DNA from: Rufibacter roseus
GTDB taxonomy: Bacteria; Bacteroidota; Bacteroidia; Cytophagales; Hymenobacteraceae
NCBI RefSeq assembly: GCF_001647285.1
Contig: NZ_LRML01000003.1
Span: 372,001-436,000, forward strand
Length of the DNA stretch: 64,000 bases
Reading direction: 5' to 3'
A program made the position numbers and the translations under genes. Below are positions 573 through 31,915 of this stretch, piece by piece (position 1 is the stretch's first letter; each line of letters begins with the position of its first letter). A model generated the notes under the pieces. The model saw nothing but the letters and a program-made list of their open reading frames with translations, searched no databases and was not told the origin of the DNA.

Positions 573-1077
573 TCGGTTACTTGGTTTTGGCTTTCATAAA
601 GTCTTTCTTCTGCAGCTACTCTGGAACAACACCAACCATTTCTTTGCGCCAACGGGCTTTCTTATGTTCCTGATTCTATACTAAAGACAACAGGAAATGG
701 CTGGGGTTGCACGGGGTTCCTAAAATAAATTGGAAGGAATATCTACTAACCTGAAAGTAAATAATTTATGATTAAAAAAGTAGATTGTCTTAATCTAAAT
801 TTGGAGAGGTTCAGAGACTGAGGATTCTCTACAGAAATGCCTGCTATTTAAACGAGATAGCCGAGTTGCTTTAATGGAAGTGCTGCTGCATATACTCCGC
901 CTTTTAAGGTATCGAGCGATAAGGAAAACCTTCTAGATTCAGAAAGACAATTAACAGTTTTCGATCTTATTTTTGGGAAAGGCTGAAACAAGAAATAGCG
1001 CCTGCTCGAACGGCCTTAATGTGCCATTTGAAACTACGAGTACCTATACCAGAGTTGTATAATCCGCGATTCTAAAA
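573..1077. other. 505-bp intergenic region without a recognised gene
   Basis: This stretch separates the sigma factor from the 3' end of the DUF4442 gene. I see no convincing reading frame in it. It holds the short ATG-AAA-GCC-AAA frame just before the sigma gene (577-597) and a degenerate copy of the dispersed palindrome near 957-989. Leftover promoter or small-RNA content cannot be excluded by eye. Confidence 0.5.
957..989. repeat. Degenerate copy of dispersed palindrome
   Basis: The pattern GTTTTCGnnCTnATTTTT followed by GGAAA-n-GGCTGAAAC matches the outer and inner arms of the 40-bp palindrome family described elsewhere in the window, with several mismatches. It lies about 90 bases past the stop of the DUF4442 gene. 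Confidence 0.45.
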
Positions 1078-1581
1078 TCAGCTATAAGACTTTTTGCGAG
1101 CTTTATAAGACCAGGTAATTCTAAAGCGAGCTACTTCTTCGCCTTGCTCGTTACGCCCCACACTAATGGTTTCAATGGTGCTACCGTTGCCCGTTGCCTG
1201 GGTCTGCTGGATAGCATTAGCAATTTTGTCTCCGTCTGAACAGGTAAAGGTGATTACGCCTACTGCTTTTTTGGTGAATTCTGCCTGCATGTTTACTACC
1301 AGCATAGACACCGATGGCTCCGCTTTGTGCAGGTACATCATGCTCATGACGCCACTTGCCAGTTCAGCGGCCATACCCAGACAGGCGAAGTAAATAGATT
1401 TGAAAGGATTTTTGGTAAGATAGGTGTAAGCTACAGTCACCTGCGCCTCTGTCTCGGTTATGCTCTTAATTCGGAGACCCGCCAAATACGCCATAGGCAG
1501 GTGCTTAAACAAGAACAGCTTCAGCTTGACTGGGTTGGAAACAATCTTCATGAAAGCAGCTGAAGCAGTAGAAATAGGCAT
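1078..1581 (-). CDS. DUF4442 hotdog-fold, thioesterase-like protein
   Basis: A 167-residue protein that I place in the DUF4442 family, which adopts the acyl-CoA thioesterase hotdog fold. Supporting segments are the central helix FACLGMAAELASGVMSM and the strand-rich parts LLVVNMQAEFTKKAVG and VARFRITWSYKARKKS. Substrates are unknown; a role in acyl-CoA or fatty-acid turnover is inferred from fold alone. It starts at an ATG with no close upstream partner, and an aldehyde dehydrogenase lies 191 bases upstream on the same strand, separated by a strong terminator, so it is probably its own transcription unit. The catalytic residues of classical thioesterases cannot be assigned by eye. Confidence 0.75.
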   Translation of the reverse strand: MPISTASAAFMKIVSNPVKLKLFLFKHLPMAYLAGLRIKSITETEAQVTVAYTYLTKNPFKSIYFACLGMAAELASGVMSMMYLHKAEPSVSMLVVNMQAEFTKKAVGVITFTCSDGDKIANAIQQTQATGNGSTIETISVGRNEQGEEVARFRITWSYKARKKSYS

Positions 1582-1680
1582 ATAGAATAAGTAAAGCGAA
1601 CAGTAAGTGGCACAAATTAGATCTTCTAATCCACTACGCGCATTTTGATTCGGTAGGAATTACGTTTTATAAAGCAATTA

Positions 1681-1719
1681 CGTTTTAGACGTATTTTCAG
1701 AAAATCAGCCGGAAAACAG
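1681..1719. repeat. Dispersed palindrome copy
   Basis: CGTTTT-AG...GTATTTT-CAG-AAAA-TCAG-CCGG-AAAACAG: an imperfect copy of the roughly 40-bp nested palindrome. It lies just past the terminator of the aldehyde dehydrogenase gene, 54 bases after its stop codon. Confidence 0.55.
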
Positions 1720-1755
1720 AAAAGCCTCACTGGCTTTATAACCAGTGAGGCTTTT
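1720..1755 (-). terminator. Rho-independent terminator after aldehyde dehydrogenase
   Basis: A perfect 14-bp inverted repeat (AAAAGCCTCACTGG at 1720-1733, complement at 1742-1755) with an 8-base loop. The A and T ends make it usable on either strand. It begins 18 bases after the stop codon of the minus-strand aldehyde dehydrogenase gene. Confidence 0.85.
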
Positions 1756-1772
1756 ACATTATTTAAAACTAC

Positions 1773-3320
1773 TTATAAGTCAAACTTGATACCTTGCGCC
1801 AACGGCAGCTCCCGCCCAAAGTTAATAGTATTGGTCTGGCGGCGCATGTAGAATTTCCAGGCATCGGAACCGGACTCACGCCCTCCGCCGGTGTCTTTCT
1901 CACCCCCGAAGGCTCCGCCAATCTCGGCCCCGGAAGTACCAATGTTTACGTTGGCAATACCGCAGTCAGAACCCCAGTGGCTCAGGAAAGTCTCGGTCTC
2001 CAGTAGGTTCGTAGAGAAGATAGAAGATGATAAACCTTGCATAACTCCGTTTTGTATTTCAATGGCATCTTCCACGGTACCACTGTATTTGATCAGGTAC
2101 AAAATAGGCGCGAAGGTTTCTTCCTGCACCATGTGGTAGTGGTTTTCTGCCTCTACCAATGCCGGAGTAACGTAGGTACCGGTGGCATACTCCTCACCCT
2201 CCAGCACTTTTCCGCCGGTCAATAATTTGCCTCCTTCTTTCTGCACTTCGGCCAAAGCATTTTCAAAAGCTTTTACGGCGTCTTTGTCTATGAGCGGGCC
2301 TACCAGAATTCCGTCTTTCAATGGGTCACCTATGGGCAGGTTCGGATAAATTTTAAGCAGTTTGTCTCTTACCTCGTCGTAAATGCTGTCATGGATGATG
2401 AGGCGGCGGGTGGTGGTGCAGCGTTGCCCGGCAGTACCCACTGCTCCAAACACAATGGCGCGCATGGCCATTTCCAGATCGGCATTTTCAGTTAAAATGA
2501 TGGCGTTGTTTCCGCCTAACTCTAGTAACGATTTACCTAAACGGGCACCCACCGCCTCGCCTACTTTCTTACCCATGCGGGTAGAGCCGGTAGCCGAAAC
2601 AATAGGAACTCTTCTGTCATGCGCCATCAGGCTACCAATAGTGGCATCTCCTACTACTAAACAGAATACTCCCTCCGGCACGTTGTTTTCTTTCAGCACA
2701 TCCTGAATAATGCGCTGGCAGGCTACCGCCGTTAAAGGCGTTTTCTCTGATGGCTTCCACACCACCACATCTCCGCACACGGCGGCCAGCATGGCGTTCC
2801 AGCTCCAAACGGCCACCGGAAAATTGAACGCAGAGATTACGCCCACTACGCCCAACGGATGGTATTGCTCATACATGCGATGCGTAGGACGCTCTGAGTG
2901 CATAGTGAAGCCGTGCAGTTGCCTTGACAAACCAACGGCAAAGTCGCAGATGTCAATCATTTCCTGTACTTCGCCTAAGCCTTCCTGCAGAATCTTGCCC
3001 ATCTCATAGCTCACCAATTTACCGAGTGCCTCCTTGTTTTCACGCAGCTTCTGCCCTATCTGGCGCACTACTTCCCCACGCTTCGGCGACGGCCATTTGC
3101 GCCACTCTACAAAAGCTTTTTGGGCGGTAGAAATTACCTGATTGTAATTCTCTTCAGTGGCCATGTTCACCGAGGCAATTACTTTGCCGTTGGTGGGGGA
3201 ATGAATGGCTTTGGTTTCTGCGTTATTTTCTCCGCCCCAGGTAAGACCGGTAGTATAGGCCGGATTTGACTCCTGAATACCCAGTTGAGCGAGCATGTCT
3301 TTAATAGCTTGTTGTTGCAT
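1773..3320 (-). CDS. Aldehyde dehydrogenase, ALDH7 / aminoadipate-semialdehyde type
   Basis: A 515-residue NAD(P)-dependent aldehyde dehydrogenase. The catalytic glutamate is in LLELGGNNA (about residue 267) and the nucleophilic cysteine in AGQRCTTTRR (about 301); the cofactor lysine segment reads VVWKPSEK. The overall pattern resembles the ALDH7 (antiquitin) family, whose members oxidise L-2-aminoadipate 6-semialdehyde in lysine breakdown or act on betaine and other stress aldehydes. I chose the ATG at 3320 (MQQQAIKDML...) because an upstream in-frame ATG at 3401 would read back through the degP terminator and adds 27 residues unlike the family. No lysine-catabolism neighbours are present, so the substrate is inferred. 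Confidence 0.88.
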   Translation of the reverse strand: MQQQAIKDMLAQLGIQESNPAYTTGLTWGGENNAETKAIHSPTNGKVIASVNMATEENYNQVISTAQKAFVEWRKWPSPKRGEVVRQIGQKLRENKEALGKLVSYEMGKILQEGLGEVQEMIDICDFAVGLSRQLHGFTMHSERPTHRMYEQYHPLGVVGVISAFNFPVAVWSWNAMLAAVCGDVVVWKPSEKTPLTAVACQRIIQDVLKENNVPEGVFCLVVGDATIGSLMAHDRRVPIVSATGSTRMGKKVGEAVGARLGKSLLELGGNNAIILTENADLEMAMRAIVFGAVGTAGQRCTTTRRLIIHDSIYDEVRDKLLKIYPNLPIGDPLKDGILVGPLIDKDAVKAFENALAEVQKEGGKLLTGGKVLEGEEYATGTYVTPALVEAENHYHMVQEETFAPILYLIKYSGTVEDAIEIQNGVMQGLSSSIFSTNLLETETFLSHWGSDCGIANVNIGTSGAEIGGAFGGEKDTGGGRESGSDAWKFYMRRQTNTINFGRELPLAQGIKFDL

Positions 3321-3402
3321 ATGTACTTTCTGATAGTTCTGAAATAAAACAAGGGGATTAATAATGCTAGTATAGGCCTTTCTGGTAACATATAGAAACA
3401 AA

Positions 3403-3430
3403 AAAGCTTCCGCCTTAGGGCAGAAGCTTT
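3403..3430 (-). terminator. Terminator after the Do-family protease gene
   Basis: A 12-bp stem (AAAGCTTCCGCC at 3403-3414 with GGCAGAAGCTTT at 3419-3430, one G-U pair) and a TTAG loop, followed on the minus strand by a T-run. It sits 44 bases after the protease stop codon and upstream of the aldehyde dehydrogenase start. Confidence 0.8.
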
Positions 3431-3440
3431 CCGAATGTCA

Positions 3441-3473
3441 TTTTAAGGCTGTTTTTATAAAATAAGACAAAAA
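3441..3473. repeat. Degenerate dispersed palindrome touching a stop codon
   Basis: TTTTAAGGCTGTTTTT-ATAAAAT-AAGAC-AAAAA: a worn copy of the palindrome family, directly abutting the stop codon of the protease gene, which is the preferred position of the family. Confidence 0.45.
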
Positions 3474-4967
3474 CTAGCGACCAATGGCGTAGTAGGCTCT
3501 ACGTCCGTCTGGATATACACCTTCAATCAAGAGACCACCACGGCGAGTACCTTTCAGGATTTTCTCTACGTCTTGCGGTGAATTAGTTGGGGTGCGGTCA
3601 ATGCTGGTGATGATGAAGCCGTCTTTCATACCTGTTTCGGCAAAAGCACTGCTCTCTACACCAGAGATTCTCACGCCACCCGGTATATCTAAACGGTTCA
3701 GGTCTTGCTTGCTGGCGGCCTCAAACTTGGCTCCATCAATGGTCAACGCTTTGCTGGCATTGGCGTCACGCTTAATAATTTCAGTGCTTCCGTTGGCATT
3801 GCGCAGGGTAACATTAACTGTTTTGGTGTTTCCACCACGCATATACGCTACCTTCACTTTGTCACCAGGTCTGTAACGGGTTACCTGCTCTTGCAGCTGG
3901 GCACCGGTGCTTACTTTTACACCGTTTATTTCAGTGATCACGTCTCCGGCCTGAAGACCGGCAGCTTTTGCGGCACTTTCTTCAGAGAAGCCAGCCACAA
4001 ACACACCGTTCAGAGTTTTCAGGCCTTTTTCTTTGGCCAGTTCAGCATCAACTTCCTGCATTTGCACCCCTAGCAAGGCACGCTGCACTTCACCATACTT
4101 GATTAGGTCATCTACTACCTTGCTCACAATGGAAGAAGGAACGGCAAATGAGTAGCCAGCAAAGGTACCAGTTTGAGAAGCAATAGCGGTGTTGATACCC
4201 ACCAAGTCACCGTTTAGGTTTACCAAAGCACCACCGCTATTTCCAGGGTTAACGGCCGCATCGGTCTGAATAAAGGCTTCTACACTGTACGTTCCTGCTC
4301 CTTGCAAAATACCCACGTTACGTCCTTTGGCACTAACTATACCGGCGGTAACTGTTGAGTTCAGGTTAAAAGGATTCCCTACCGCCAACACCCACTCGCC
4401 TACGCGTACATTATCTGAGTTACCGTAGCGCAAAGCTGGCAGGTTATCCGCATTTATTTTCAGAAGGGCGATATCAGTATTTGGGTCGGCACCAACCAGC
4501 GTAGCTTCGAAAGTGCGTTTATCATCCAGAATCACCTGAATTTTGTCGGCGCGATCAATTACGTGGTTGTTGGTCACAATGTAACCGTTTGAAGCAATGA
4601 TCACACCTGAACCGGAACCCATAGCAGGTCCTTGGCGGCGTTGATAACCTTCAAACTCGTCTCCGAAGAAATCACGGAAAAAAGGATGTATTTGACTAGG
4701 CGAAGACCGACGAGCCTGTACTTTATATTCAGTTGTAACGTGCACCACTGCTGGAGTTACCAGTTCGGCGGCAGTTACAAAGTTAAGTCCTTCTGGTACT
4801 ACCACCTTAGAATCGCGCATGGCGCTGGTGTACCGTACGTTTGTGTTTGGCAACTGCTGGCCTGAGTTAGGTTGCTCATTTTCCAGCAACTTATAACTCC
4901 CTACGGCCACTCCCCCACCTACCATAGCGGAGAGCATCAAGCCCAACATTAACTGTTTTGTATTCAT
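3474..4967 (-). CDS. degP: Periplasmic serine protease/chaperone, HtrA/Do family
   Basis: A 497-residue envelope protease that would degrade or refold misfolded exported proteins. An N-terminal hydrophobic segment (about residues 6-24) is a signal peptide or anchor. The trypsin-like domain has the full triad: His135 in TNNHVID, Asp165 in NTDIALL and Ser244 in NPGNSGGAL. Two PDZ domains follow, about residues 295-390 and 400-497, the first with GLQAGDVITEINGVKV. Length and domain order match Do-family proteases. It is transcribed alone, between the terminator at 5100-5125 and its own terminator at 3403-3430. A small heat-shock gene lies just upstream on the same strand, which fits a shared proteostasis theme. 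DegP and DegQ cannot be told apart by eye. Confidence 0.92.
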   Translation of the reverse strand: MNTKQLMLGLMLSAMVGGGVAVGSYKLLENEQPNSGQQLPNTNVRYTSAMRDSKVVVPEGLNFVTAAELVTPAVVHVTTEYKVQARRSSPSQIHPFFRDFFGDEFEGYQRRQGPAMGSGSGVIIASNGYIVTNNHVIDRADKIQVILDDKRTFEATLVGADPNTDIALLKINADNLPALRYGNSDNVRVGEWVLAVGNPFNLNSTVTAGIVSAKGRNVGILQGAGTYSVEAFIQTDAAVNPGNSGGALVNLNGDLVGINTAIASQTGTFAGYSFAVPSSIVSKVVDDLIKYGEVQRALLGVQMQEVDAELAKEKGLKTLNGVFVAGFSEESAAKAAGLQAGDVITEINGVKVSTGAQLQEQVTRYRPGDKVKVAYMRGGNTKTVNVTLRNANGSTEIIKRDANASKALTIDGAKFEAASKQDLNRLDIPGGVRISGVESSAFAETGMKDGFIITSIDRTPTNSPQDVEKILKGTRRGGLLIEGVYPDGRRAYYAIGR

Positions 4968-5969: not shown

Positions 5970-6017
5970 ACTCCTGTTTTCGGCCTGAATTTGTAAAAGC
6001 AGGTCAAAAACAGGAGT
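5970..6017. repeat. Dispersed palindrome copy after M20 amidohydrolase
   Basis: ACTCCTGTTTT-CGGCCTG...CAGGTC-AAAAACAGGAGT: outer arms of about 11 bp, inner GGCCTG/CAGG arms and a T/A-rich centre. It lies 20 bases past the stop codon of the minus-strand amidohydrolase and may act as its transcript end. Confidence 0.75.
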
Positions 6018-12063: not shown

Positions 12064-12184
12064 AGCGGATTTTCCGACATTCTCTAGTTAGCTAAAACAA
12101 TACCATGTTTGCATTAGTGCCCCGCGCCTGACGGGATGTCAGAAATAGCCTGATTTTGTTTGTACGAAGGCAAGGGAGAGGAGA

Positions 12185-12223
12185 TGTTTCGGAGCTGATT
12201 TTTGGAAAAGAGGCCGAAAACAG
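12185..12223. repeat. Dispersed palindrome copy upstream of secA
   Basis: TGTTTCGGAGCTG-ATTTTTGGAAAAG-AGGCCGAAAACAG: outer and inner arms match the family with mismatches on the left. It is one of the few copies not next to a stop codon. Confidence 0.6.
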
Positions 12224-12320: not shown

Positions 12321-12367
12321 CCCCCTGTTTTGACCCTACTTTTTAAAAAGAAGGGCTAAAACAGGGG
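12321..12367. repeat. Dispersed palindrome copy after the fusion gene
   Basis: CCCCCTGTTTT-GACCCT...AGGGCT-AAAACAGGGG: a strong copy 18 bases after the stop codon of the GH1/RmlD fusion gene. Confidence 0.75.
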
Positions 12368-12385: not shown

Positions 12386-14659
12386 CTATGCATGCGCGGC
12401 CAATAGCTCATCATCTTCAGTAGTATCTACCAATGGTTCTGACGGTCTGAAAGCAAATTCAGTGGCTCTTAGATAGCGTAGAAGTGCGTCCTCCACTCTA
12501 GGTAAGTTGGCTCTTTTACCTGTAGCCAAGGCCGAATTGGCAGGCCTGAGGGCAGACAGGTCAAGCGACTCCTGTGAAACTGGCTGTAGCCAAGGGTGAG
12601 GTTCTAAACCAGCCACAGTGGCAGCCAGTTCGGCTAGTTGTGCCCATGAGTACGTACCGCTGTTGGCTATATGCCAAATGCCGCTCTCCTCATCCAGCAA
12701 AAGGTCAACTGTGGTTTGAACTAAGTCTGGCACGTAGGTGGGAGTGATATAAGTATCATCCGCAGCTTGAAAAAATTCTTTATGGGCTATGGTCTTCAAG
12801 GCTTGGTAAACAAAGTTATGCTCATCCCAAGGGCCGAAGAAAGCGCTGGTTCTTATGATCAAAGCCTTTGGCATGGCGGCCAAAACCTGTTCTTCGGCTA
12901 ATGCTTTGCTGCTGCCATACACATTGAGCGGGTTGGGTTGATCTGTTTCATGATAGCCCCCTTTATTTTGCCCGTCAAATACTAAATCAGAAGAAAAAGT
13001 TACCAGCTGAATGCCTCTGGCACGGCAGTGCTTTGCCAAGTTAACGGGCCCCAGTGCGTTTTCACGATAGCAAGTTTCTGGCTCTAACTCGGCTTGGTCT
13101 ACCCGCACATAACCAGCGGTGTTTACCACTGCCCAAGGTCCATATTTCTGCAAAGCTTTTTCTACCGAAGCCTCCTCCGTTATGTCCATTTCTTGCCGTG
13201 AGAGCAGTACGTATGGGATTCCACGCTCATCACAAATGCGGGCGAAGGCTTTACCTAGGGTACCAGTTGCACCTGTTATGAGCAGTGGCTCTATTTTTGT
13301 TTTTGGCAACGCCGCTTGGTCAGCGACACACCACTTCTCAGGTACTTCAGGCGGGGCCGGGAAAAGAGTGCGACAGGTTCGTTTCCACCAGCCGTCTATC
13401 TGCAACACGGGGTGGCGTGGCGCATTAGAGGACAAATCCTTCATCAGCTTGGCCACGGCGTTGGGTTCAGGCACTCCGGTTCGCACATCAAACACACCGG
13501 GTTCATAAAAGCCACGTTGCTCAGTTAAGAGAGTATTCCAGTCAAATGCCCCCAGCAGAGACCAAGCCGTTACCGCCAACACGTTTTTGCCCTGATTTTT
13601 CAAAAACAGGGCAGAATCCCACACTTCAGCTAACCAGCGCATCTGCTCTTCGCGGGTACAGCACAAGTGGGCTTCGGTAATAGCTATAGCACTATCAGGG
13701 TATCGTTCACAAGCTTGCGCCAGAATGTTCTGCACCCCCAGCGGCTGGGCATGCCCCACGCGTACGGTTTCTACATCGGCGTAGCGATGCCGGCCGTTAC
13801 TGCCATGCGTGTGCAGGGGGTAATCAGTGATGTGTTCGTCTAAGTACCGCTCACTGGTGACGTAGTAGTTCACCCCTATCACCTCAGGTGGGCAGGGTAC
13901 TTTTACCAAGTCTAACAGTTCTGCCTCCGGAATTCCTCCTGCCAATAAGTACTTCCAAAGCGGGTGCTGCGGGTTTACCTTACCGCATAGCAAATCCCAG
14001 GAGAGCCAGCGGCGGTGATTTTCGAAATCGGCTTGGTATTGTAAGGCAGGCGTGCTTTGGGTGTAGCCCAAGTCATCTGTCTGGACTAATTTAGCCTCAG
14101 GATTTATTTCCCTGATGGCCTGCATGGCATGTCTGGTGCCTTTGATCTGGTTCAGGAGGGCCTTCAGGAAAGAGGCATCGTCTTTGGCGTGCGGATACCA
14201 GAGACCGTAGAGGGCGCTGAACCGAGCAGTGGTTAGGGGTTCGTTAACGGGAGTGTAGTAATTCACCCACGGAAACTGTTGGGCCACAGCCCGCGCATAG
14301 GCGGCAAATTTCTGTGGGAAATCTTGATCTAGTAAGTTAGTGTACCGCGGGCCGCTGCCATGGTGCAGCAAACCTACAATAGGGTCTATATCTAACGCGC
14401 GGAGCTTGTTCAGGCGTTCGGTGGCCCAGCTCCAGTCTTGCTGTTCCGGATGATCCGGTGCTACGCTTTCCCATAGCACCGAATACCGTATTTTCTTGAT
14501 GCCTAAATCTGCGAAGAGATCTAAGTCTGATAATCGGCTTTTATGTCCACTTTGGGCGAGCTGGTCAAAGTACTGGTCACCTACCCGGTTAATGGTACAC
14601 TCCACACCGCCCCAAAGGTCAATGTTTACCATTCGTACTGATTTTGGTGGAACTTCCAT
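12386..14659 (-). CDS. Two-domain protein: GH1-like glycosidase fused to RmlD-like reductase
   Basis: A 757-residue fusion. Residues about 12-410 form a GH1-like TIM barrel with acid/base Glu140 in YTPVNEPLTT and a nucleophile-like Glu329 in IAITEAHLCC (family 1 usually reads ITENG). Residues about 457-720 form a short-chain dehydrogenase of the dTDP-4-dehydrorhamnose reductase type: Rossmann motif ITGATGTLGKAF, FSSDLVFDG, and active-site YGSSK (Tyr581, Lys585). There is no signal peptide, so both domains work in the cytoplasm. The start overlaps the 3' end of glf by 41 bases; a second ATG at 14632 would cut the overlap to 14. It ends the glycosyltransferase-glf-fusion operon, so a role in building or editing a cell-surface sugar is likely. 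The real substrates are unknown. One palindrome unit lies in frame at residues 348-360. Confidence 0.82.
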   Translation of the reverse strand: MEVPPKSVRMVNIDLWGGVECTINRVGDQYFDQLAQSGHKSRLSDLDLFADLGIKKIRYSVLWESVAPDHPEQQDWSWATERLNKLRALDIDPIVGLLHHGSGPRYTNLLDQDFPQKFAAYARAVAQQFPWVNYYTPVNEPLTTARFSALYGLWYPHAKDDASFLKALLNQIKGTRHAMQAIREINPEAKLVQTDDLGYTQSTPALQYQADFENHRRWLSWDLLCGKVNPQHPLWKYLLAGGIPEAELLDLVKVPCPPEVIGVNYYVTSERYLDEHITDYPLHTHGSNGRHRYADVETVRVGHAQPLGVQNILAQACERYPDSAIAITEAHLCCTREEQMRWLAEVWDSALFLKNQGKNVLAVTAWSLLGAFDWNTLLTEQRGFYEPGVFDVRTGVPEPNAVAKLMKDLSSNAPRHPVLQIDGWWKRTCRTLFPAPPEVPEKWCVADQAALPKTKIEPLLITGATGTLGKAFARICDERGIPYVLLSRQEMDITEEASVEKALQKYGPWAVVNTAGYVRVDQAELEPETCYRENALGPVNLAKHCRARGIQLVTFSSDLVFDGQNKGGYHETDQPNPLNVYGSSKALAEEQVLAAMPKALIIRTSAFFGPWDEHNFVYQALKTIAHKEFFQAADDTYITPTYVPDLVQTTVDLLLDEESGIWHIANSGTYSWAQLAELAATVAGLEPHPWLQPVSQESLDLSALRPANSALATGKRANLPRVEDALLRYLRATEFAFRPSEPLVDTTEDDELLAAHA
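13581..13619. repeat. Dispersed palindrome copy inside a coding region
   Basis: GTTTTTGCCCTGATTTTT followed by AAAAACAGGGC: a good match to the family core, read in frame as part of the GH1-like domain (residues DSALFLKNQGKNV). It is one of two coding copies in the window. Confidence 0.6.
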
Positions 14660-15862: not shown

Positions 15863-15903
15863 GCGTGTTTTGAGCATGCTTTCTGAAAACACGCTCAAAA
15901 TGC
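15863..15903. repeat. Dispersed palindrome variant after glycosyltransferase
   Basis: GCGTGTTTTGAGCATGCTTTC-TGAAAACACGCTCAAAATGC: same architecture as the palindrome family but with GAGC/GCTC in place of GGCC. It is 23 bases past the glycosyltransferase stop and upstream of glf. Confidence 0.6.
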
Positions 15904-17210: not shown

Positions 17211-17417
17211 ATACGATAGCTTAGGATAAGAATAGAATGGTATATCAAAAAAGTAAGAGAAATGGCTGGCATCTCTCTTACTGCTCCCGTGCATACGTAT
17301 TACTGCTAAAAAAGCTACATAAACCTTTAAAATAGAGTATTTATTTAATTTTGAATAGGGCAAATCCGTAAAAATAACATCGGCTGTTGCCTTACCTTTT
17401 ACTGCTCCTGATTAGTG

Positions 17418-18019: not shown

Positions 18020-18059
18020 CTGTTTTTAGCTTGTTTTTATAAAATCAGGCCGAAAACAG
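18020..18059. repeat. Dispersed palindrome copy after dapF
   Basis: CTGTTTTTAGCTTG-TTTTTATAAAA-TCAGGCCGAAAACAG, 9 bases past the dapF stop codon. The outer CTGTTTT/AAAACAG arms are exact. Confidence 0.75.
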
Positions 18060-18833: not shown

Positions 18834-18903
18834 TTTGTTAATGTGGTAATGGAGACATAAGATTTAAGACGCAAGACACAAGACTATCCTGTAACTAAGT
18901 TTA

Positions 18904-18942
18904 CGTTTTAGGCCTATTTTCAGGAAAACAGCTTAAAAACAG
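18904..18942. repeat. Dispersed palindrome copy between divergent genes
   Basis: CGTTTTAGGCCTATTTT-CAG-GAAAACAGCTTAAAAACAG: a recognisable copy in the shared upstream region of dapF and the methyltransferase, not near a stop codon. Confidence 0.65.
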
Positions 18943-19999: not shown

Positions 20000-20044
20000 A
20001 AATCCGTTTTGCTGTTTCCTGGAAAACAGGGCAAAAACGGATTT
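20000..20044. repeat. Dispersed palindrome copy after methyltransferase
   Basis: AAATCCGTTTT-GCTGTTTCC-TGGAAAACAGGGC-AAAACGGATTT with 11-bp outer arms. It lies 34 bases after the methyltransferase stop. Upstream of it is a low-complexity GTTGATTG repeat (about 19970-19990). Confidence 0.75.
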
Positions 20045-21151: not shown

Positions 21152-21196
21152 CCTATCGTTTTTCACCTGCTTCTCGAAAAGCAGCGCCAAAATAGG
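21152..21196. repeat. Dispersed palindrome copy after the Ppx/GppA gene
   Basis: CCTATCGTTTTT...CTGCTT-n5-AAAGCAG...CCAAAATAGG: an imperfect copy of the family with a clear inner stem, 14 bases past the Ppx/GppA stop codon. Confidence 0.6.
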
Positions 21197-24170: not shown

Positions 24171-24216
24171 GGCGCATTTTGGAGCTATTTTCTGGAAAAC
24201 AGCCCCAAAACACGCC
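24171..24216. repeat. Dispersed palindrome copy after the DUF4139 gene
   Basis: GGCGCATTTTGGAGCT-ATTTTC-TGGAAAACAGC-CCCAAAACACGCC: arms of the family type, 21 bases past the stop of the minus-strand DUF4139 gene. Confidence 0.7.
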
Positions 24217-24237: not shown

Positions 24238-25884
24238 TTAAAGACCGCTTACCTGCCGGTTCTTCGGGTATTTCACCACGTACTTAAGGTGCCGTTTGGC
24301 GGTTTCATTAGGCTGTAGCTGAATTTGCCAGGTAACTTTGCCGGTGTCTTTGTCTAGCTTGCCGCCGTTGGTTTCAATGTCTTCCACGCTCACTTCACTG
24401 GTGGAGCTCACCGGAACCTGGTCTTCCAAGGTAATGGTAACGGGCTGTGCTTTGGTGTTTCGCAAGGTAATTTCAAACCCAAACTGCTCTTTGATATTAC
24501 TGCCGAAAGTAGACTGCTTTTGGTAATCTTGCTGCCGCTCACGCTGTACTATCACGTTTTGGTCGCGGCCCAGGGAGATGGTGAGTGTGTCACCGGTTTC
24601 TTCAGGGTTGAGGAACGACTTACCCGTGAAAGTGCCGCCCAGAAACACATTGGCTACACCAGGAAGCAGCTTTAAAGCCTCCCAATTAGTTAAATGTGCT
24701 ACCAAGAAAGCGGTGGGGTCAAGTTTTGGCACAGTGGTGTGGGCGTACGTAGTGGTGAGGTTGTGCTGCTGAATGTCAACGGTGTGCGGTTTCCCGTCTG
24801 AAGGAACACTGAACGGGATGCCTATTTTAAACTCAGCGGCCAGTGTGGTAGAAATGGCCTCAGTGTAATCTGCTGTGGTTTCAGAGACAGCATCTGCCCT
24901 TACTACACCAGCCACTCTTCCAACTAACACTTCATTTAGGTCCTGTTCCTCTTCATCTTTCTTCACCACCGGAGGAGTAAACTTAACTGTACTTCTGACT
25001 GGCGGGGGCGTAAGTGGGTACAGGTCTATGTAGTTTGTAGTCAAGTAAGGCTTTTCAGCGCCTTCAGCGGGATTGGTAGTGGCCAAAGTAAGTTGTACGT
25101 TGTTCCAGTCTACACCGGTGTTCTGGCGCACATTGGCTTTGTACTGAAGCTGCACCGGCCCTTGGTTACCCGATGCCCGAAGGTCATAAACTGGTTCCCA
25201 TGCAGCATTATACACCAAATACGTTACCTCCAGCCCCACCTGCGCCTTGCCTGAGGCCTGCACCGCCACAATCACACGGTTATTGGCTTGTTGGTTTCGC
25301 CTGAACTGATTCACCTGATTATTAAACTGAATTTGCCGCCGGCGCAGAATTTCCAATTGAATGTCTATCAGCTGAATTTCCTTCCGGATGGCCAGCAGGC
25401 GGGTACGGTAATAATCGGCTACTTCTTTGAGACGGGCGGCGGTGGTACCTGCCTGAGAGCCACCTATATTCTGGTTGGCGTGCAGCAGTGCCTCTTCTTT
25501 CTGCAACACCTCCCGTTGGTCGTTTAGACTTCTAATTCGGCCATTGTAGCTCTGCACTGAGTCTTCTAGGCGCTGATGCTCTACCAGTTTCTCATTAGCC
25601 TGCAGAAAGTTCTGCTCATACCGCACCGAAAGCAGCGTTATGTTTCCGGTGGGGTTTACCTGCACGCTATTTTCGTCGAGCTGCGTGGGCATGCCCTCCA
25701 GCACTAATTCGGTCACACCTGACTCAACACTGGCTCGGCCCACGTTGGTAACCTGCGCCCGGTTCAGGAACACGGTTACCGCTTTTACCTGTGTGGGCAG
25801 CGGCACCTGTTTCTGGGCTGAAATCTGAAAAACAGGTCCAAAACAGGTAATGAGTAAAATAAAAGGAAGAAAAACATTTTTCAT
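24238..25884 (-). CDS. DUF4139 domain protein (mucoidy-inhibitor-like)
   Basis: A 548-residue exported protein of the DUF4139 family, sometimes labelled mucoidy inhibitor A. A signal peptide occupies about residues 1-24; an N-terminal domain with VTVFLNRAQVTNVGRASV (DUF4140-like) is followed by a coiled coil (about 96-205) and the C-terminal DUF4139 beta-rich domain. Residues about 315-328 (DLNEVLVGRVAGVV) recall the plug signature of SusC-type TonB receptors, an odd insertion in this family. One dispersed palindrome is read in frame across the signal-peptide cleavage region (residues 13-27). The molecular role is unknown. Confidence 0.82.
   Translation of the reverse strand: MKNVFLPFILLITCFGPVFQISAQKQVPLPTQVKAVTVFLNRAQVTNVGRASVESGVTELVLEGMPTQLDENSVQVNPTGNITLLSVRYEQNFLQANEKLVEHQRLEDSVQSYNGRIRSLNDQREVLQKEEALLHANQNIGGSQAGTTAARLKEVADYYRTRLLAIRKEIQLIDIQLEILRRRQIQFNNQVNQFRRNQQANNRVIVAVQASGKAQVGLEVTYLVYNAAWEPVYDLRASGNQGPVQLQYKANVRQNTGVDWNNVQLTLATTNPAEGAEKPYLTTNYIDLYPLTPPPVRSTVKFTPPVVKKDEEEQDLNEVLVGRVAGVVRADAVSETTADYTEAISTTLAAEFKIGIPFSVPSDGKPHTVDIQQHNLTTTYAHTTVPKLDPTAFLVAHLTNWEALKLLPGVANVFLGGTFTGKSFLNPEETGDTLTISLGRDQNVIVQRERQQDYQKQSTFGSNIKEQFGFEITLRNTKAQPVTITLEDQVPVSSTSEVSVEDIETNGGKLDKDTGKVTWQIQLQPNETAKRHLKYVVKYPKNRQVSGL
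25806..25847. repeat. Dispersed palindrome copy inside a signal-peptide coding region
   Basis: CCTGTTTCTGGGCTG-AAATCTGAAAAA-CAGGTCC-AAAACAGG: family-like arms read in frame at residues 13-27 of the DUF4139 protein, spanning the predicted cleavage site. Confidence 0.55.
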
Positions 25885-27180: not shown

Positions 27181-27183
27181 TGA

Positions 27184-27221
27184 CGTTTTCGCCTATTTTT
27201 GCAAAAATAGGCCGAAAACAG
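27184..27221. repeat. Dispersed palindrome copy after the Ldh-family gene
   Basis: CGTTTTCGCCTATTTTTGC-AAAAATAGGCCGAAAACAG: one of the best copies, beginning 3 bases after the stop codon. Confidence 0.8.
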
Positions 27222-27323
27222 GCGGGAGAAGTTCTCTTCTTGCTCTGTTATTGAGTAATGGATAAGAGAAATTCCTTATATTTATTTCAATGCCAGCCGC
27301 TCCATCTATCTTTTCAGAACCAC

Positions 27324-28406: not shown

Positions 28407-28440
28407 CTTTTACACTTTAATTACTATTCGTCATTCCCCC

Positions 28441-28477
28441 TTTTCGACCTGTCTTTGAAAAAGCAGGCCGAAAATAG
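28441..28477. repeat. Dispersed palindrome copy between convergent genes
   Basis: TTTTCGACCTGTCTTTG-AAAAAGCAGGCCGAAAATAG, 34 bases after the orphan gene's stop and 40 bases from the CPBP-type stop. It could serve both transcripts. Confidence 0.75.
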
Positions 28478-28517
28478 AAATCTACGCCCTTTGCATTTTT
28501 ACTTAAGAATTCATGCT

Positions 28518-29300
28518 TTAGGAATAGCTTAACTTTTTGCTCACAATATAATTAACTAGAGCAAAAAGCAGGATAAAGAAAGTGAGTTCCCAAAGCCCCG
28601 GTATGGCAGAGGTACCTTCTTTGACAGACAACACATCATTTGAGAAACGATACACAATGTTGCCGGCCCAATGCGCGCCTACTGTGTACCACAGGTTCTT
28701 AGTATAAACTAATGGAATAGCCATCATGATGCCTAATACAAACAAATATATTAGAGCGGCTGGGCCATCATTCAGGGAGTAGACATGGTTTAGCACATAC
28801 ACCACTGCTGACAGTATAACAAGAGACCATTTCCCCATTCTCTTATGCAGGTGCCCGTAAAGATAGCCTCTGGTCAAAACGTCTTCCGCCAACGACGGCA
28901 AAAAGGTACCCACAGTGAAAATTAACGTTTGTATAGCTAAAGTGGAAAGTTCTGGCACTGCAGTCACTACTTCCATATTTAACCACAGCCGTACCGCAAA
29001 AGCCACTCCGTTCACCAATATTCCCAAGCCTAAGCCGTAGGCAAAAAACTTGATGAACGTACTGTTCATCCGCAGCCCCCATGCGCTGAGTCCTTTAAGA
29101 CCCTGTAGCCGTGCTACTATGTATGCTACCGGAATAACGGCCAGCATCAACCCAAGAAACAAAGGGACGTGCTGGTGAAACCGCATGGCATATTCGGCGG
29201 CATGATAGGTTAAAGCAAGTGCCCCATACCCCGCTACCACAGACAGCCAGGAGCTTTTAACGGTAAATGAACGGATAGGTGCTGTTTGAAGCTGCGGCAT
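28518..29300 (-). CDS. CPBP-family (CaaX protease-like) membrane protein
   Basis: A 260-residue polytopic membrane protein with about seven hydrophobic segments. The CPBP motifs appear as AEDVLTRGYLYG (ExxxR type; the usual EE is ED), VYVLNHVYSLND and GAHWAGNIVYR, which supply the conserved glutamate, arginine and histidines of the Abi/CaaX intramembrane protease family. Members may cleave prenylated or bacteriocin-related peptides, or have lost activity; the substrate here is unknown. It is divergent from hscA, 217 bases away. Confidence 0.82.
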   Translation of the reverse strand: MPQLQTAPIRSFTVKSSWLSVVAGYGALALTYHAAEYAMRFHQHVPLFLGLMLAVIPVAYIVARLQGLKGLSAWGLRMNSTFIKFFAYGLGLGILVNGVAFAVRLWLNMEVVTAVPELSTLAIQTLIFTVGTFLPSLAEDVLTRGYLYGHLHKRMGKWSLVILSAVVYVLNHVYSLNDGPAALIYLFVLGIMMAIPLVYTKNLWYTVGAHWAGNIVYRFSNDVLSVKEGTSAIPGLWELTFFILLFALVNYIVSKKLSYS

Positions 29301-29470
29301 AGAAAACTATTCCAGAAGTATTACTAGCTTTTGAAGTTACTGTAAATATAGATTATTTCTTATACTTAAAGAACTTCACTAAGCTTTGCTACTGAGTAAG
29401 ACATCCTTTCAATCATTCTATATCAGTTACCCTTCTGAAACCGTAAACCAATAGGCAGGCTATTTCTTTG

Positions 29471-29478
29471 TACTTTTG
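29471..29478 (+). promoter_or_regulatory. Putative -7 promoter box (TACTTTTG) for hscA
   Basis: TACTTTTG followed by CA fits TAnnTTTG and lies 40 bases before the chosen hscA ATG at 29518, so the in-frame TTG inside this box (29476) is unlikely to be the start. Confidence 0.5.
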
Positions 29479-29517
29479 CAGAGAGTGCACAAAATGCGCT
29501 CCATTAAAACTGACTAT

Positions 29518-31377
29518 ATGGCTAAAATTGCAATAAACTTAACCACCGCTTCCATTCAGCAGGAAGAAGTGATTGTAGGTATTGACTTGGGAACTACCAA
29601 CAGCCTGGTAGCCTATATACACCCTGAAGACCGGAAACCCATTGCTATCAATGACCAAGGCTTAGGCACCATTGTCCCCTCAATAGTACACTTCTCCCAG
29701 AACGAAGAAGTGCTGGTAGGCAATGCAGCAAAGGATTACCTTATCACAGACCCCGCCAACACTATTTATTCTGTAAAACGCTTGCTGGGTAAGTCATACC
29801 AAGACCTAGGTGAGCACAAAGATTTCTTCGGCTATAAAATCATTGACGATAACTCTGAAGGCTTGGTGAAAATACGGGTGCAGGACAAGTTCTACTCCCC
29901 CATTGAACTGAGCGCTGAAATTCTTAAGGAGCTTCGTGCCCGCGCCGAGCACTCTTTGAAAACGCCGGTAAACCGTGCCGTTATTACCGTTCCCGCTTAC
30001 TTCAATGACAGCCAACGCCAAGCTACCCGCGATGCCGGAAAACTAGCCGGGCTGGAAGTGCTCCGTATTGTGAACGAACCTACCGCAGCTGCTTTGGCTT
30101 ACGGCATTGGCTTAGACCAAACCGAAGAGAAAACCATCGCTGTGTATGATTTGGGCGGTGGAACCTTTGATATTTCCATCCTTCGCATTCACCAGGGAAT
30201 CTTCGAAGTACTTTCCACCAACGGCGACACTTATTTGGGCGGTGACGATTTTGACCGCGAAATCATTCAGCATTGGACGCTTGGCAATAAACTTTTAGCT
30301 GACTCTGCGGCCATAGACCCCAACCTTGGTCAGGCTTTACGCCTGAGAGCAGAAGAAGCAAAAAAAGCATTGAGCACCTCTGATAAATATTCTTCAGAAC
30401 TCAACGGCATAGAGTTAACGCTGGACCGCCACACCTTTGAAACGCTTATCACGCCTATTGTAGACCGCACCATGGCCTCCTGCAAAATGGCTCTGAGTGA
30501 TGCTGGTCTTAAAACTGAACAGATTGATACGGTGATTATGGTGGGTGGCTCCACCCGGGTGCCACTGGTACTGCAAGCCGTAGCTGACTTTTTTCAATGC
30601 CCAGTAAACAACACCTTGAATCCTGATGAAGTGGTTGCTCTGGGCGCCGCTATTCAGGCCGATGTGTTGTCTGGGAACCGGAAGGACATTCTGCTGCTGG
30701 ACGTGACTCCGCTGACATTAGGTATTGAAACCATGGGCGGCTTAATGGATCCTATTATACCTCGTAATTCTAAAATACCCACCAAGGCAGGCCGCCAGTA
30801 CACCACTTCTATTGACGGCCAGGTGAACATGAAGATTTCGGTGTACCAAGGCGAGCGTGATTTGGTGAAAGAGAACCGAAAACTGGCGGAATTCGATTTA
30901 AGAGGCATTCCGGCCATGCCTGCCGGTTTCCCGAAGGTAGACGTAAACTTCATCTTGAATGCCGACGGTATTTTGAAAGTAGAAGCCATTGAACTGCGTT
31001 CTGGGGTTCGGCAGGAAGTGGAAGTGAAACCTCAGTATGGCCTCACCGATGAGCAGGTAGAGCAGATGCTCATGGACTCCATTACCCACGCCCGTGAAGA
31101 CGTGAGCACCCGCATGGTGATTGAAGCCCGCACCACCGCCGAGCAGATGATTTACCAAGTAGAGCGTTTTGTGGAGAAAAACGGAGAGCATTTAACTCCA
31201 GAAGAGATTGAGTTGACCCGCCAAAACGTGCAGAATTTAAAAGATGTACTAAGTTCCGGTGACAAAGACACCATACTGAAAGCTGTGGATGTGCTGGAAG
31301 AACAAACCAGTCCATTTGCGGAGCGTGTCATGCAGATATCTATCAAGAAAGCCATGACCGGTAAAAAGTTAAACTAA
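29518..31377 (+). CDS. hscA: Hsp70-family chaperone, HscA-like (Fe-S assembly)
   Basis: A 619-residue Hsp70. Nucleotide-binding motifs are intact: VGIDLGTTNSLVAY, AVYDLGGGTFDISIL and VGGSTRVPLVLQAV; the substrate-binding domain follows with DVTPLTLGIETMGG and a C-terminal helical lid. The N-terminal stretch MAKIAINLTTASIQQEE resembles the Bacteroidota HscA group, which helps transfer iron-sulfur clusters from IscU, rather than canonical DnaK. No isc or hscB gene is adjacent, so the specific role is inferred. I chose ATG 29518 over upstream in-frame starts because they fall in or next to the probable promoter. A palindrome copy and a strong terminator follow at once. Confidence 0.85.
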   Translation: MAKIAINLTTASIQQEEVIVGIDLGTTNSLVAYIHPEDRKPIAINDQGLGTIVPSIVHFSQNEEVLVGNAAKDYLITDPANTIYSVKRLLGKSYQDLGEHKDFFGYKIIDDNSEGLVKIRVQDKFYSPIELSAEILKELRARAEHSLKTPVNRAVITVPAYFNDSQRQATRDAGKLAGLEVLRIVNEPTAAALAYGIGLDQTEEKTIAVYDLGGGTFDISILRIHQGIFEVLSTNGDTYLGGDDFDREIIQHWTLGNKLLADSAAIDPNLGQALRLRAEEAKKALSTSDKYSSELNGIELTLDRHTFETLITPIVDRTMASCKMALSDAGLKTEQIDTVIMVGGSTRVPLVLQAVADFFQCPVNNTLNPDEVVALGAAIQADVLSGNRKDILLLDVTPLTLGIETMGGLMDPIIPRNSKIPTKAGRQYTTSIDGQVNMKISVYQGERDLVKENRKLAEFDLRGIPAMPAGFPKVDVNFILNADGILKVEAIELRSGVRQEVEVKPQYGLTDEQVEQMLMDSITHAREDVSTRMVIEARTTAEQMIYQVERFVEKNGEHLTPEEIELTRQNVQNLKDVLSSGDKDTILKAVDVLEEQTSPFAERVMQISIKKAMTGKKLN

Positions 31378-31378
31378 G

Positions 31379-31418
31379 CTGTTTTAGGGCTGTTTTCTCA
31401 AAAACAGCCCTAAAACAG
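31379..31418. repeat. Dispersed palindrome copy right after hscA
   Basis: CTGTTTTAGGGCTGTTTT-CTC-AAAAACAGCCC-TAAAACAG: a nearly perfect copy, beginning 1 base after the hscA stop codon and followed at once by a conventional terminator. Confidence 0.85.
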
Positions 31419-31420
31419 AA

Positions 31421-31471
31421 CTATAAAGCAGAAGGGGCGGCTCCGTTAAGAGCCGCCCTTCTGCTTTATAG
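31421..31471. terminator. Bidirectional terminator between hscA and divIC
   Basis: A 22-23-bp inverted repeat (CTATAAAGCAGAAGGGGCGG onward, centre CGTTAA) with one bulged G. It separates convergent hscA and divIC and can end both transcripts. Confidence 0.9.
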
Positions 31472-31482
31472 TTAAAAGAATT

Positions 31483-31782
31483 TTATTTCTCGTCCTTCTC
31501 TACAATGATGTATAAATCTTCTGTAGGCTTTTTCATGAGGTACTTTTCACGCGCAAATTTCTCAAGTAGTTCTGGGTTGCTCAACAGTTCTTTGCGGTCT
31601 TTCTGTACCTCGGCAATCTTCTCCAGGTAATAATCACGCTCCTCTTCCAGCGCGCTTAGCTTGCGGCTGGTCTGAAACTGCGTGATAAAATCATTGGCAT
31701 CAAAGAAGAACATCCACACCAAAAAGGCGAGGGTAATCAGAAAATAGAAGTTGCGGAAAAATTTAGGGACGCGTGCCAGCAT
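31483..31782 (-). CDS. FtsB/DivIC-type septum formation initiator
   Basis: A 99-residue bitopic cell-division protein of the FtsB/DivIC group, which links the divisome core to septal wall synthesis. After a short basic cytoplasmic start (ARVPKFFRN) comes one membrane helix (FYFLITLAFLVWMFFFD), then a coiled coil (about residues 40-75) and the conserved PELLEKFAREKYLMKKPTED. I chose the ATG at 31782: the frame is open to 31890, but those 36 extra residues would be encoded by the terminator at 31795-31822 and a dispersed palindrome. Only about 13 bases lie between that hairpin and the ATG. It follows eno on the same strand. Confidence 0.85.
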   Translation of the reverse strand: MLARVPKFFRNFYFLITLAFLVWMFFFDANDFITQFQTSRKLSALEEERDYYLEKIAEVQKDRKELLSNPELLEKFAREKYLMKKPTEDLYIIVEKDEK

Positions 31783-31794
31783 AATCTCAAAAAA

Positions 31795-31822
31795 ATGGCG
31801 GCAAGCCCGAGCTTGCCGCCAT
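31795..31822 (-). terminator. Terminator or attenuator between eno and divIC
   Basis: Perfect 12-bp stem ATGGCGGCAAGC (31795-31806) with its complement (31811-31822) and a 4-base loop, followed on the minus strand by a T-run ending about 7 bases before the divIC ATG. Its position makes it a terminator for carA-eno or an attenuator for divIC. Confidence 0.8.
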
Positions 31823-31877
31823 GAATTTACAAAGAATCCTGAAGGTAACGCAAAAGAATTTTCACTTTCCGCTAATT

Positions 31878-31915
31878 CTGTTTTAGGCATAGTTTTCTAA
31901 AACCAGTCCTAAAAC
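31878..31915. repeat. Dispersed palindrome copy after eno
   Basis: CTGTTTTAGGCATAGTTTTC-TAAAACCAGTCC-TAAAACG: a moderate copy, 33 bases past the eno stop and upstream of the terminator at 31795-31822. Confidence 0.65.

What the first reader, a model, noticed from the sequence alone, without database searches (positions are those of the whole stretch)
957..31915. Dispersed 40-bp nested palindrome that favours positions just after stop codons
About 17 copies share one layout: CTGTTTT, n, GGCCTG-like, a T-rich then A-rich centre, CAGGCC-like, n, AAAACAG. Good copies are at 5970-6017, 12321-12367, 18020-18059, 20000-20044, 24171-24216, 27184-27221, 28441-28477 and 31379-31418; weaker ones at 957, 1681, 3441, 12185, 15863, 18904, 21152 and 31878, plus coding copies at 13581 and 25806. 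Twelve lie within about 1-55 bases after a stop codon, on both strands, and arms co-vary (GGCC/GGCC, GAGC/GCTC, GCCC/GGGC). None was found in the tightly packed ribosomal cluster, apart from an echo in the rpoB-rpoC gap. Co-variation with conserved stem layout suggests a structured RNA 3' end or a binding site, not chance. I know of no named family that matches, so it may be undescribed.
Basis: partly seen in the sequence, partly recalled or inferred. Interest (0 to 1): 0.78.

Follow-up and report, generated by a model that had tools for sequence, protein, structure and literature searches.

The report
Two-thousand-copy palindromic chromosome mark
A 36-40 base palindrome occurs an estimated 2,000 times in the chromosome of a Rufibacter-like bacterium, mostly between genes and often right behind stop codons; it tends to stay in the same places in related species while its letters drift, so it is probably a DNA site that some unknown protein reads, and it fits no family of repeats that we tested.

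Summary
A position matrix finds 190 copies in 456 kb of this Rufibacter-like genome (0-1.5 in simulated controls), an estimated 2,000 per genome. All 16 held genomes of the genus have it; among 395 drawn from the class only the window's own matches. Copies are mostly intergenic, biased to the first 60 bases after stop codons, and sit in 92 of 117 convergent gaps. The structured-RNA argument fails: G-T mismatches (572) equal A-C mismatches (573) on the transcribed strand, and pairing adds 0.004 bits per position. Arm symmetry is enriched only in a minority (180 of 1,141 copies, 66 expected). Between two species 39 of 39 strong aligned non-coding copies (39 of 40 the other way) stay in place; T/A tracts change at 7.5-9.2%, flanks at 21%. 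The consensus differs by species. Samples of two secondary contigs and one low-GC island nearly lack copies. Best reading: a dyad DNA site read by an unidentified protein and kept by selection, a chromosome punctuation whose job (insulation, topology, nucleoid) is inferred. REP-tag, terminator, Rfam and mobile-repeat tests were not met; uptake-sequence-like drive remains a rival.

The parts
1680..1719 (.). dyad element, 53 bases after the stop of ORF 1773-3401 (-)
3438..3477 (.). dyad element, weaker, overlaps the stop of ORF 3474-4967 (-)
   Evidence: same gap holds one in the 5 relatives compared there, 18-28 bits
5974..6013 (.). dyad element, 24 bases after the stop of ORF 6038-7243 (-)
   Evidence: present in the 3 relatives compared there, G012, G048 and G017
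12184..12223 (.). dyad element, first of two in the same gap
   Evidence: two copies also in G012, G048, G060, one in G017
12325..12364 (.). dyad element, 21 bases after the stop of ORF 12386-14659 (-)
13581..13620 (.). copy inside ORF 12386-14659
15865..15903 (.). weak dyad element, 23 bases after the stop of ORF 15927-17363 (-)
   Evidence: of 6 relatives compared there 4 show one, one of these at 10 bits only
18020..18059 (.). dyad element, 9 bases after the stop of dapF (18069-18833, -)
18903..18942 (.). dyad element in a divergent gap
   Evidence: present in the five relatives compared there
20004..20040 (.). dyad element in a shortened form, 38 bases after the stop of ORF 19081-19965 (+)
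21156..21195 (.). dyad element, 18 bases after the stop of the Ppx/GppA-family gene (20205-21137, +), convergent gap
24174..24213 (.). dyad element, 24 bases after the stop of ORF 24238-25884 (-)
25807..25846 (.). copy inside ORF 24238-25884 near its start
27182..27221 (.). dyad element, 1 base after the stop of ORF 26122-27180 (+)
28438..28477 (.). dyad element in the convergent gap between ORFs 27258-28406 (+) and 28518-29300 (-)
31379..31418 (.). best copy in the window, 1 base after the stop of the HscA-like gene (29476-31377, +)
   Evidence: 42 bits; an element in the same gap in all 13 relative sets compared, one of them weak (9 bits)
31421..31472 (+). separate intrinsic-terminator-like hairpin with flanking A/T tracts, just beyond the element
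   Evidence: read by eye; the same order stop-element-hairpin read by eye in L001-L008
31878..31917 (.). dyad element, 31 bases after the stop of enolase (31949-33226, -); overlaps the first 13 bases of ORF 31483-31890 as listed
   Evidence: an element in the same gap in all 13 relative sets compared
57328..57367 (.). weaker dyad element 4 bases after the stop of the gene taken as rpoB (57372-61244, -), in the rpoB-rpoC gap
   Evidence: found only by the model with pairs, E 0.03

Best explanation
The element is a 36-40 bp dyad-symmetric DNA site, half-site roughly (C/G)(T/C)GTTTT-n-RR(C/G)CTG-TTTTY, two half-sites meeting over about 2 free bases. An estimated 2,000 copies mark the chromosome of Rufibacter-group genomes. 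It most likely acts as double-stranded DNA, recognised by a dimeric or tetrameric sequence-specific protein not yet identified: helically spaced T/A tracts as minor-groove or bend contacts, the GGCCTG block as major-groove contact. Symmetry lets it work whichever way a neighbouring gene is read, which suits its frequency in convergent gaps and after stop codons. My preferred function is chromosome punctuation: an insulating, topological or nucleoid-binding site between transcription units. Shown: site, copy number in the samples, placement, retention in place, conserved T/A tracts, no RNA signature, species dialects, depletion in samples of two secondary contigs and one island. Inferred: the protein, its contacts and its job.
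For: 190 copies in 456 kb against 0-1.5 in Markov controls near the same threshold; 831 pattern matches genome-wide against 0 for the backward pattern; estimate 1,974-2,132 per genome. Half-sites almost always 2 (167), 3 (21) or 1 (13) bases apart. GT 572 = AC 573 mismatches on the mRNA strand over 463 copies; structure adds 0.004 bits per position. Orthologous gaps: element in both 66, relative only 11, own only 4, neither 125, tiny gaps set aside 144 (R. ruber counted twice as G060 and L002). Close pair: 39 of 39 strong aligned non-coding G045 copies recognised in G032 and 39 of 40 the other way; T/A tracts 35/466 and 43/467 changed, flanks 245/1176 and 255/1231. Density 37-57 per 100 kb in 11 sequence sets while the consensus differs, even around the G012 chromosome (144 in 20 stretches, variance/mean 0.52). 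Samples of two secondary contigs: 4 in 80 kb and 3 in 100 kb, chromosome 45.6 and 53.7 per 100 kb. Gaps of 60 bases or more over six genomes: convergent 92 of 117 occupied, tandem 268 of 561, divergent 52 of 125.
Against: No protein was identified, so 'protein-read' is inference. 52 of 125 divergent gaps also hold a copy, so this is not purely a transcription-unit end mark. The excess of perfectly symmetric copies (180 of 1,141 against 65.9; strongest in G012), positive arm-to-arm correlation in all 11 sets (z 0.6 to 4.7) and 92 two-sided cells against 72 are not needed by a protein site and hint at a palindrome-making process or cruciform. The pair-aware model R3 gives higher bit scores in the window than the pairless R2 (31379: 55.5 against 42.1 bits); the two use different scoring engines, so I do not count this either way. 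Variable positions change faster than the flanks (25-35% against 21%). The low rate in T/A tracts is partly helped by choosing copies by score, though in one genome at a time. One strong G032 copy (39 bits) has only a degenerate counterpart in G045. Only 39 of 60 and 40 of 66 strong non-coding copies lay in aligned DNA. G006:C3 (7.5 kb) has 3 matches of 23-29 bits, so depletion on secondary contigs is not universal.
Confidence: 0.55

Rival explanations
1. DNA-uptake-sequence-like signal kept by molecular drive: DNA carrying the site is taken up or recombined preferentially, so copies accumulate in the shared core genome, drift together into species dialects, and are missing from plasmids and islands.
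For: Thousands of copies, dialects, near absence from one island and from samples of two secondary contigs, association with gene ends; dialects and association with terminators are described for DUS in Neisseriaceae (PMC3630211, passages). ComEC-family gene in 16 of 16 genomes.
Against: Type IV pilus/type II secretion ATPase family PF00437 over its cut-off in 0 of 16 genomes (8 of 16 have a partial match below cut-off; 13 of 14 control genomes are over it); known DUS reading uses the receptor ComP (PMC3630211 passages; PMC3868556, abstract start). DUS is short (recalled); this site is a 36-40 bp dyad with solitary half-sites no commoner than in a control (56 against 62 at 11 bits).
Confidence: 0.15
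2. REP-like mobile palindrome spread by a RAYT/Y1 transposase or another transposase, with 3' preference from purging elsewhere.
For: High copy, intergenic, palindromic; excess of perfect palindromes; Y1 transposase family in 15 of 16 genomes; a few identical copies in G048 and G051; three IS200-type Y1 loci (L141-L143) have copies within about 400 bases of the gene.
Against: Copies stay in orthologous places; the 190 G000 copies contain no two identical 36-mers; the 8 Y1 loci fetched carry 14 copies of 20 bits or more in 26 kb, inside the range of the chromosomes (no statistical test); G017 has 361 pattern matches and no Y1 hit; GTAG/CGTC tags at chance; near absence from an island and samples of two secondary contigs.
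Confidence: 0.1
3. Structured RNA at mRNA 3' ends (exonuclease block or RNase III site).
For: Position after stop codons; weak co-variation (92 two-sided cells against 72 shuffled).
Against: GT = AC on the mRNA strand when pooled; single sets vary both ways, G012 having 32 GT and 63 AC; arms independent at positions 7-13 in G000; 0 Rfam matches in the window; two-arm changes in the close pair 17 against 13.2 expected, of which 2 keep a pair (23 ungapped copies).
Confidence: 0.08
4. Transcription terminator, intrinsic or bidirectional.
For: Occupies 92 of 117 convergent gaps. Outside the elements, terminator-like hairpins are found less often in convergent ends with an element (10 of 56 in G000) than in a Pontibacter sample (47 of 88), though the samples differ in gene content and masking may hide some.
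Against: No T-run follows the hairpin: the T tracts are 5' and central, A tracts 3'. A separate hairpin with T tract lies just beyond the best copy and in L001-L008. At the same HscA loci terminator frequency is similar: 33 of 103 ends in Rufibacter, 110 of 280 in Pontibacter.
Confidence: 0.1

Closest known systems
REP/BIME elements (GTAG- and CGTC-tagged palindromes; PMC3733652, passages)
   Same: 20-40 bp palindromes, high copy, intergenic, often near stop codons
   Different: No GTAG/CGTC tag above chance, few multiple copies per gap (119 gaps with one, 19 with two, 3 with three), no GT bias, no clear transposase link, kept in place across species
DNA uptake sequences (DUS of Neisseriaceae, USS of Pasteurellaceae)
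   Same: Thousands of copies, species dialects, gene-end association; DUS distribution is used to spot acquired elements (PMC7371117, title and abstract start)
   Different: 36-40 bp dyad instead of a short oriented word (recalled); PF00437 ATPase not over cut-off; only 21 of 190 copies inside genes
HIP1 of cyanobacteria (GCGATCGC)
   Same: Highly iterated palindrome typical of one lineage
   Different: HIP1 is an 8-base word linked to DNA methyltransferases (PMC4390886, abstract start); this is long with variable core letters
Chromosome-organising dyads (parS, matS; recalled, no call)
   Same: Palindromic chromosomal sites read by a dimeric protein
   Different: Those are few per genome and regional (recalled); here an estimated 2,000, spread evenly around the G012 chromosome

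Membership tests
REP (tagged palindromes) | GTAG or CGTC tetranucleotide at one end | tested here: not met
   GTAG within 12 bases of 8 and 6 copies on the two sides against 5.9 expected; CGTC 2 and 0 against 3.2 (190 copies); feature from PMC3733652 passages
REP (tagged palindromes) | associated with RAYT transposase genes (GTAG type) | tested here: inconclusive
   8 Y1 loci fetched carry 14 copies of 20 bits or more in 26 kb, within the chromosomal range, though L141-L143 have copies near the gene; G017 has no Y1 hit
REP (tagged palindromes) | GT pairing of stem residues often seen | tested here: not met
   GT 572, AC 573 pooled over 463 copies
Intrinsic terminator | hairpin followed at once by a T-run | tested here: not met
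   consensus has T tracts 5' and central, A tracts 3'; separate terminator beside the best copy
Structured RNA family (Rfam) | match to a curated family | tested here: not met
   0 matches over gathering score in the window
Structured RNA family (Rfam) | co-variation across copies beyond column composition | tested here: inconclusive
   weak; excess of fully symmetric copies; no GT bias
DNA uptake sequence | thousands of copies with species dialects | tested here: met
   estimated about 2,000; consensus differs between sets
DNA uptake sequence | type IV pilus uptake machinery | tested here: not met
   PF00437 over cut-off in 0 of 16 genomes, partial matches below cut-off in 8; only this one family was tested
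DNA uptake sequence | enhances uptake or transformation | not testable with these tools
   needs an experiment
Mobile repeat (MITE-like) | gain and loss at orthologous places | tested here: not met
   39 of 39 strong aligned non-coding copies kept one way, 39 of 40 the other; across the genus 15 of 81 occupied gap comparisons are one-sided
Protein-bound DNA site | a protein that binds it | not testable with these tools
   no candidate found; no systematic search made

The most novel reading that the evidence does not exclude
A genus-specific chromosome punctuation system: an unknown DNA-binding protein reads about 2,000 palindromic sites between transcription units and insulates or organises the chromosome. 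Protein and sites have co-evolved into species dialects, so that site letters change together across the genome while their places stay fixed, and newly acquired DNA is recognisably unmarked.
Probability: 0.35. Interest if true: 0.88.

Novelty: new variant of a known kind. Interest (0 to 1): 0.72.

Why it matters
If sites in about half of the intergenic gaps of 60 bases or more (412 of 803 over six genomes) are held in place by selection, the genus has a genome-wide DNA mark of unknown reader. My searches showed no description of it (open-licence papers, listings only; one search was too loose to tell). It gives a natural experiment on how thousands of sites change letters together, and a test bed for whether bacteria insulate convergent genes with proteins. 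It might also mark acquired DNA by its absence.

Tried and rejected
Structured RNA: rejected as the main reading after the pairing, wobble and model tests. Model R1 was built with a structure string shifted by one column; it was not used.

Transposon ends: half-site pairs at larger distances (up to 400 bases) were looked for and none stood out; longer distances were not tested.

RAYT-driven REP: disfavoured. Terminator replacement: inconclusive to negative. The first count was contaminated because the finder reads the element itself as a terminator, so it was redone with elements masked.

Whole-genome count by model: one search scored only 150 of 7,970 candidates, so it is no count; copy number comes. 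In one search the label 'of 28' is wrong: the pattern has 26 fixed bases.

Word enrichment in sister genera for an analogous element gave nothing clear. One-arm clustering of changes in the close pair (P 0.0085) is partly an indel artefact and is not relied on. One-sided rows of the close pair at 10-24 bits (8 in G045 only, 10 of the 11 in G032 only, mostly coding) fall below the 25-bit cut of the 39-of-39 count. The 13 sets overlap slightly: L001 and L004 lie partly in the G045 and G032 stretches.

A systematic hunt for the binding protein was not done.

Full report
WHAT IS THERE. The window is G000:C23:372001-436000 of a 5.12-Mb genome. Its HscA-like protein is 86-91% identical to those of Sabulibacter ruber and Rufibacter species (L001-L008) and 69-84% to the other 72 of the 80 loci kept. 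A consensus scan scores 24 or more at 17 places in the window, against 1 place in 20 simulated windows. Iterating a position matrix over 456 kb of the same contig gives 190 copies at 13 bits or more; simulated stretches of equal length give 0-1.5 near that threshold in the last two rounds. A strict pattern with up to 3 mismatches has 831 matches genome-wide and none when read backwards. In the 456 kb the same pattern matches 80 times, so the genome holds an estimated 1,974 (by ratio) to 2,132 (by length) copies.

ANATOMY. Each half-site reads roughly (C/G)(T/C)GTTTT n (G/A)(G/A)(C/G)CTG T TTT (T/C). Two half-sites face each other, usually across 2 bases (167 pairs), sometimes 3 (21) or 1 (13); solitary half-sites at 11 bits or more number 56, against 62 half-site matches in a simulated sequence. 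Positions 3-4 and 14-16 are 95-98% T, positions 2 and 5 84-89%; position 6 and the centre are nearly free, and the GGCCTG block is intermediate.

DNA, NOT RNA. If a hairpin RNA were the selected form, G-T mismatches should be tolerated on the transcribed strand and A-C ones not. Over 463 tandem-gap copies of 11 sequence sets the counts are GT 572 and AC 573; single sets vary both ways (G012 32 and 63, G037 29 and 18). In G000 the arms at positions 7-13 pair as often as if dealt independently. A pair-aware model holds 0.956 bits per position against 0.952 without pairs. In the close pair of species, changes in both arms are 17 against 13.2 expected, and 2 keep a pair in both species (23 ungapped copies).

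RESULTS AGAINST A PURE INDEPENDENT-ARM VIEW. Cells changed on both sides are 92 against 72+-6 shuffled. Position 6 co-varies in G000 (0.39 against 0.27); in other sets single columns reach z 2.8-4.5, and arm-to-arm identity exceeds shuffles in all 11 sets (z 0.6-4.7). On whole arms, 180 of 1,141 copies in 13 sets are symmetric at positions 6-9 against 65.9 expected; in G012 31 of 203 are symmetric at positions 1-13 against 3.3. In the window the pair-aware model scores the same sites higher than the pairless one, but the two engines are not comparable. So a minority of copies are, or recently were, perfect palindromes. Template-switch repair of palindromes or cruciform selection could do this (inference).

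PLACE. Of 190 copies 116 are in tandem gaps, 37 convergent, 16 divergent, 21 in genes (home-made gene finder). In gaps of 60 bases or more over six genomes, 92 of 117 convergent, 268 of 561 tandem and 52 of 125 divergent gaps hold one; a second sample of G012 gives 29 of 40, 69 of 135 and 10 of 39. Within 60 bases of a stop: 103 of 153 against 65.1 expected. Copies are single in most occupied gaps (119 with one, 19 with two, 3 with three). Terminator-like hairpins lie beside some of them, in either order, so the element is not the terminator at those places.

DISTRIBUTION. All 16 held genomes of the genus, the window's own included, match the strict pattern (22-1,538 matches); of 104 other family genomes 4 have a single match each. 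In a class-wide draw of 395 genomes, with no other member of the genus among them, only the window's own matches at up to 2 mismatches; that pattern is built on the G000 consensus and would miss a strongly shifted relative. Low strict counts inside the genus go with dialects: with a matrix refitted to each set the density is 37-57 per 100 kb in all 11 sets, against 0-4 matches per set on reversed sequence. R. immobilis (G048) prefers GTTTAGGGGCTG, G051 GTTTTnGGnCTCATTTC. Of 32 Pontibacter/Adhaeribacter/Hymenobacter loci scanned (L009-L032 and eight more), 30 have no match and two have one 12-bit match each. Copies are spread evenly around the G012 chromosome, 5-10 per 20 kb except one stretch with 1. 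Samples of two secondary contigs (80 of 155 kb in G051, 100 of 235 kb in G006) are depleted about ten-fold or more (5.0 against 45.6, 3.0 against 53.7 per 100 kb), while a 7.5-kb contig is not (3 matches); that these contigs are plasmids was not tested. A 38.6-kb low-GC stretch of C23 (36.2-74.8 kb), with genes that look from their N-termini like glycosyltransferases and sugar-nucleotide enzymes (my reading, no family search), has no intergenic copy. The window's ribosomal-cluster part is also nearly empty, so deserts are not all acquired DNA.

HISTORY. In orthologous gaps between G000 and 13 relative sets, both have an element 66 times, only the relative 11, only G000 4, neither 125; 144 tiny gaps were set aside (relatives scored at 8 bits or more, G000 at 13; R. 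ruber is present twice). Sabulibacter ruber (G045) and R. psychrotolerans (G032) are 91% alike at the HscA locus, 75-91% over the twelve longest aligned blocks. All 39 strong (25 bits or more) non-coding G045 copies in aligned DNA are recognised in G032, and 39 of 40 the other way; 21 of 60 and 26 of 66 strong copies lay outside aligned DNA. T/A tracts differ at 35 of 466 (43 of 467) sites, flanks at 245 of 1,176 (255 of 1,231), the GGCCTG block at 115 of 459 (120 of 470), free positions at 75 of 231 (82 of 234). At all strengths 59 are in both, 8 in G045 only and 11 in G032 only; 15 of these 19 are coding matches of 10-22 bits, 4 are non-coding (15, 18, 24 and 39 bits), so at least one real loss or gain exists. 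Elements are therefore mostly not hopping; they are kept where they are, their tracts under constraint, the rest changing faster than the flanks.

MECHANISM. Fixed half-site spacing, constraint on tracts rather than on pairing, indifference to strand, and retention in place point to a dyad DNA site read by a dimeric or tetrameric protein. Symmetry makes it usable from both sides, which fits convergent gaps. I think insulation or topological/nucleoid anchoring between transcription units most likely (about 0.3 by itself), with protein-roadblock termination as one form. The protein is unknown. Uptake-sequence-like drive explains dialects and the depleted island and contigs equally well, but the type IV pilus/type II secretion ATPase family is not over cut-off in any of the 16 genomes, whereas ComEC is in all.

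KNOWN KINDS. Of the marks tested it does not show those of REP elements (tag, GT pairing; the transposase link is inconclusive), intrinsic terminators, Rfam RNAs or mobile repeats (see membership test). It shares with DUS/USS the copy number and dialects. Searches for a description listed no paper on it: 2 papers, off topic by title; 0; 1, off topic; 8 of 18 listed, none about this by title; none of these papers was read, one search was too loose to tell, and subscription papers were not searchable.

Noticed in passing
G000:C23:36226-74807 (L082-L084): Low-GC stretch (0.38-0.42 against 0.464) whose genes look from their N-termini like glycosyltransferases and sugar-nucleotide enzymes, with no intergenic element: perhaps acquired later. 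No family search was run on it.
   Followed up: partly
window 12386-14659 (-): One 757-aa ORF matches glycosyl hydrolase family 1 (39-384) and RmlD substrate-binding/epimerase domains (459-716): an unusual fusion.
   Followed up: no
G048 (Rufibacter immobilis) L104-L106, L126-L130: Copies are homogenised: 7 of 70 share one 36-mer, and the centre is CC/GG in 41 of 70, unlike G000 where no two of 190 are identical.
   Followed up: partly
G012, 31 of 203 copies: Symmetric at positions 1-13, 3.3 expected: a subset with matching arms whose origin is unexplained.
   Followed up: partly
L189 (viral contig IMGVR_UViG_2839759663_000002): One strong copy (51 bits) between two predicted genes of a contig filed as viral, perhaps a prophage of a Rufibacter relative.
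   Followed up: no
L009-L028 (Pontibacter HscA loci): The text behind HscA repeats AACTATAG/TATACTT-like words (by eye); CAAGTATG occurs 30 times against 10.8 expected in Pontibacter non-coding DNA. Possibly another genus-specific iterated motif.
   Followed up: no
G000:C39:219735-220076 (L141): A strong Y1/IS200-type transposase match (97 bits) with element copies about 400 bases before and 250 after it; weaker Y1 matches in open frames of 185-226 aa at five other places in G000.
   Followed up: no
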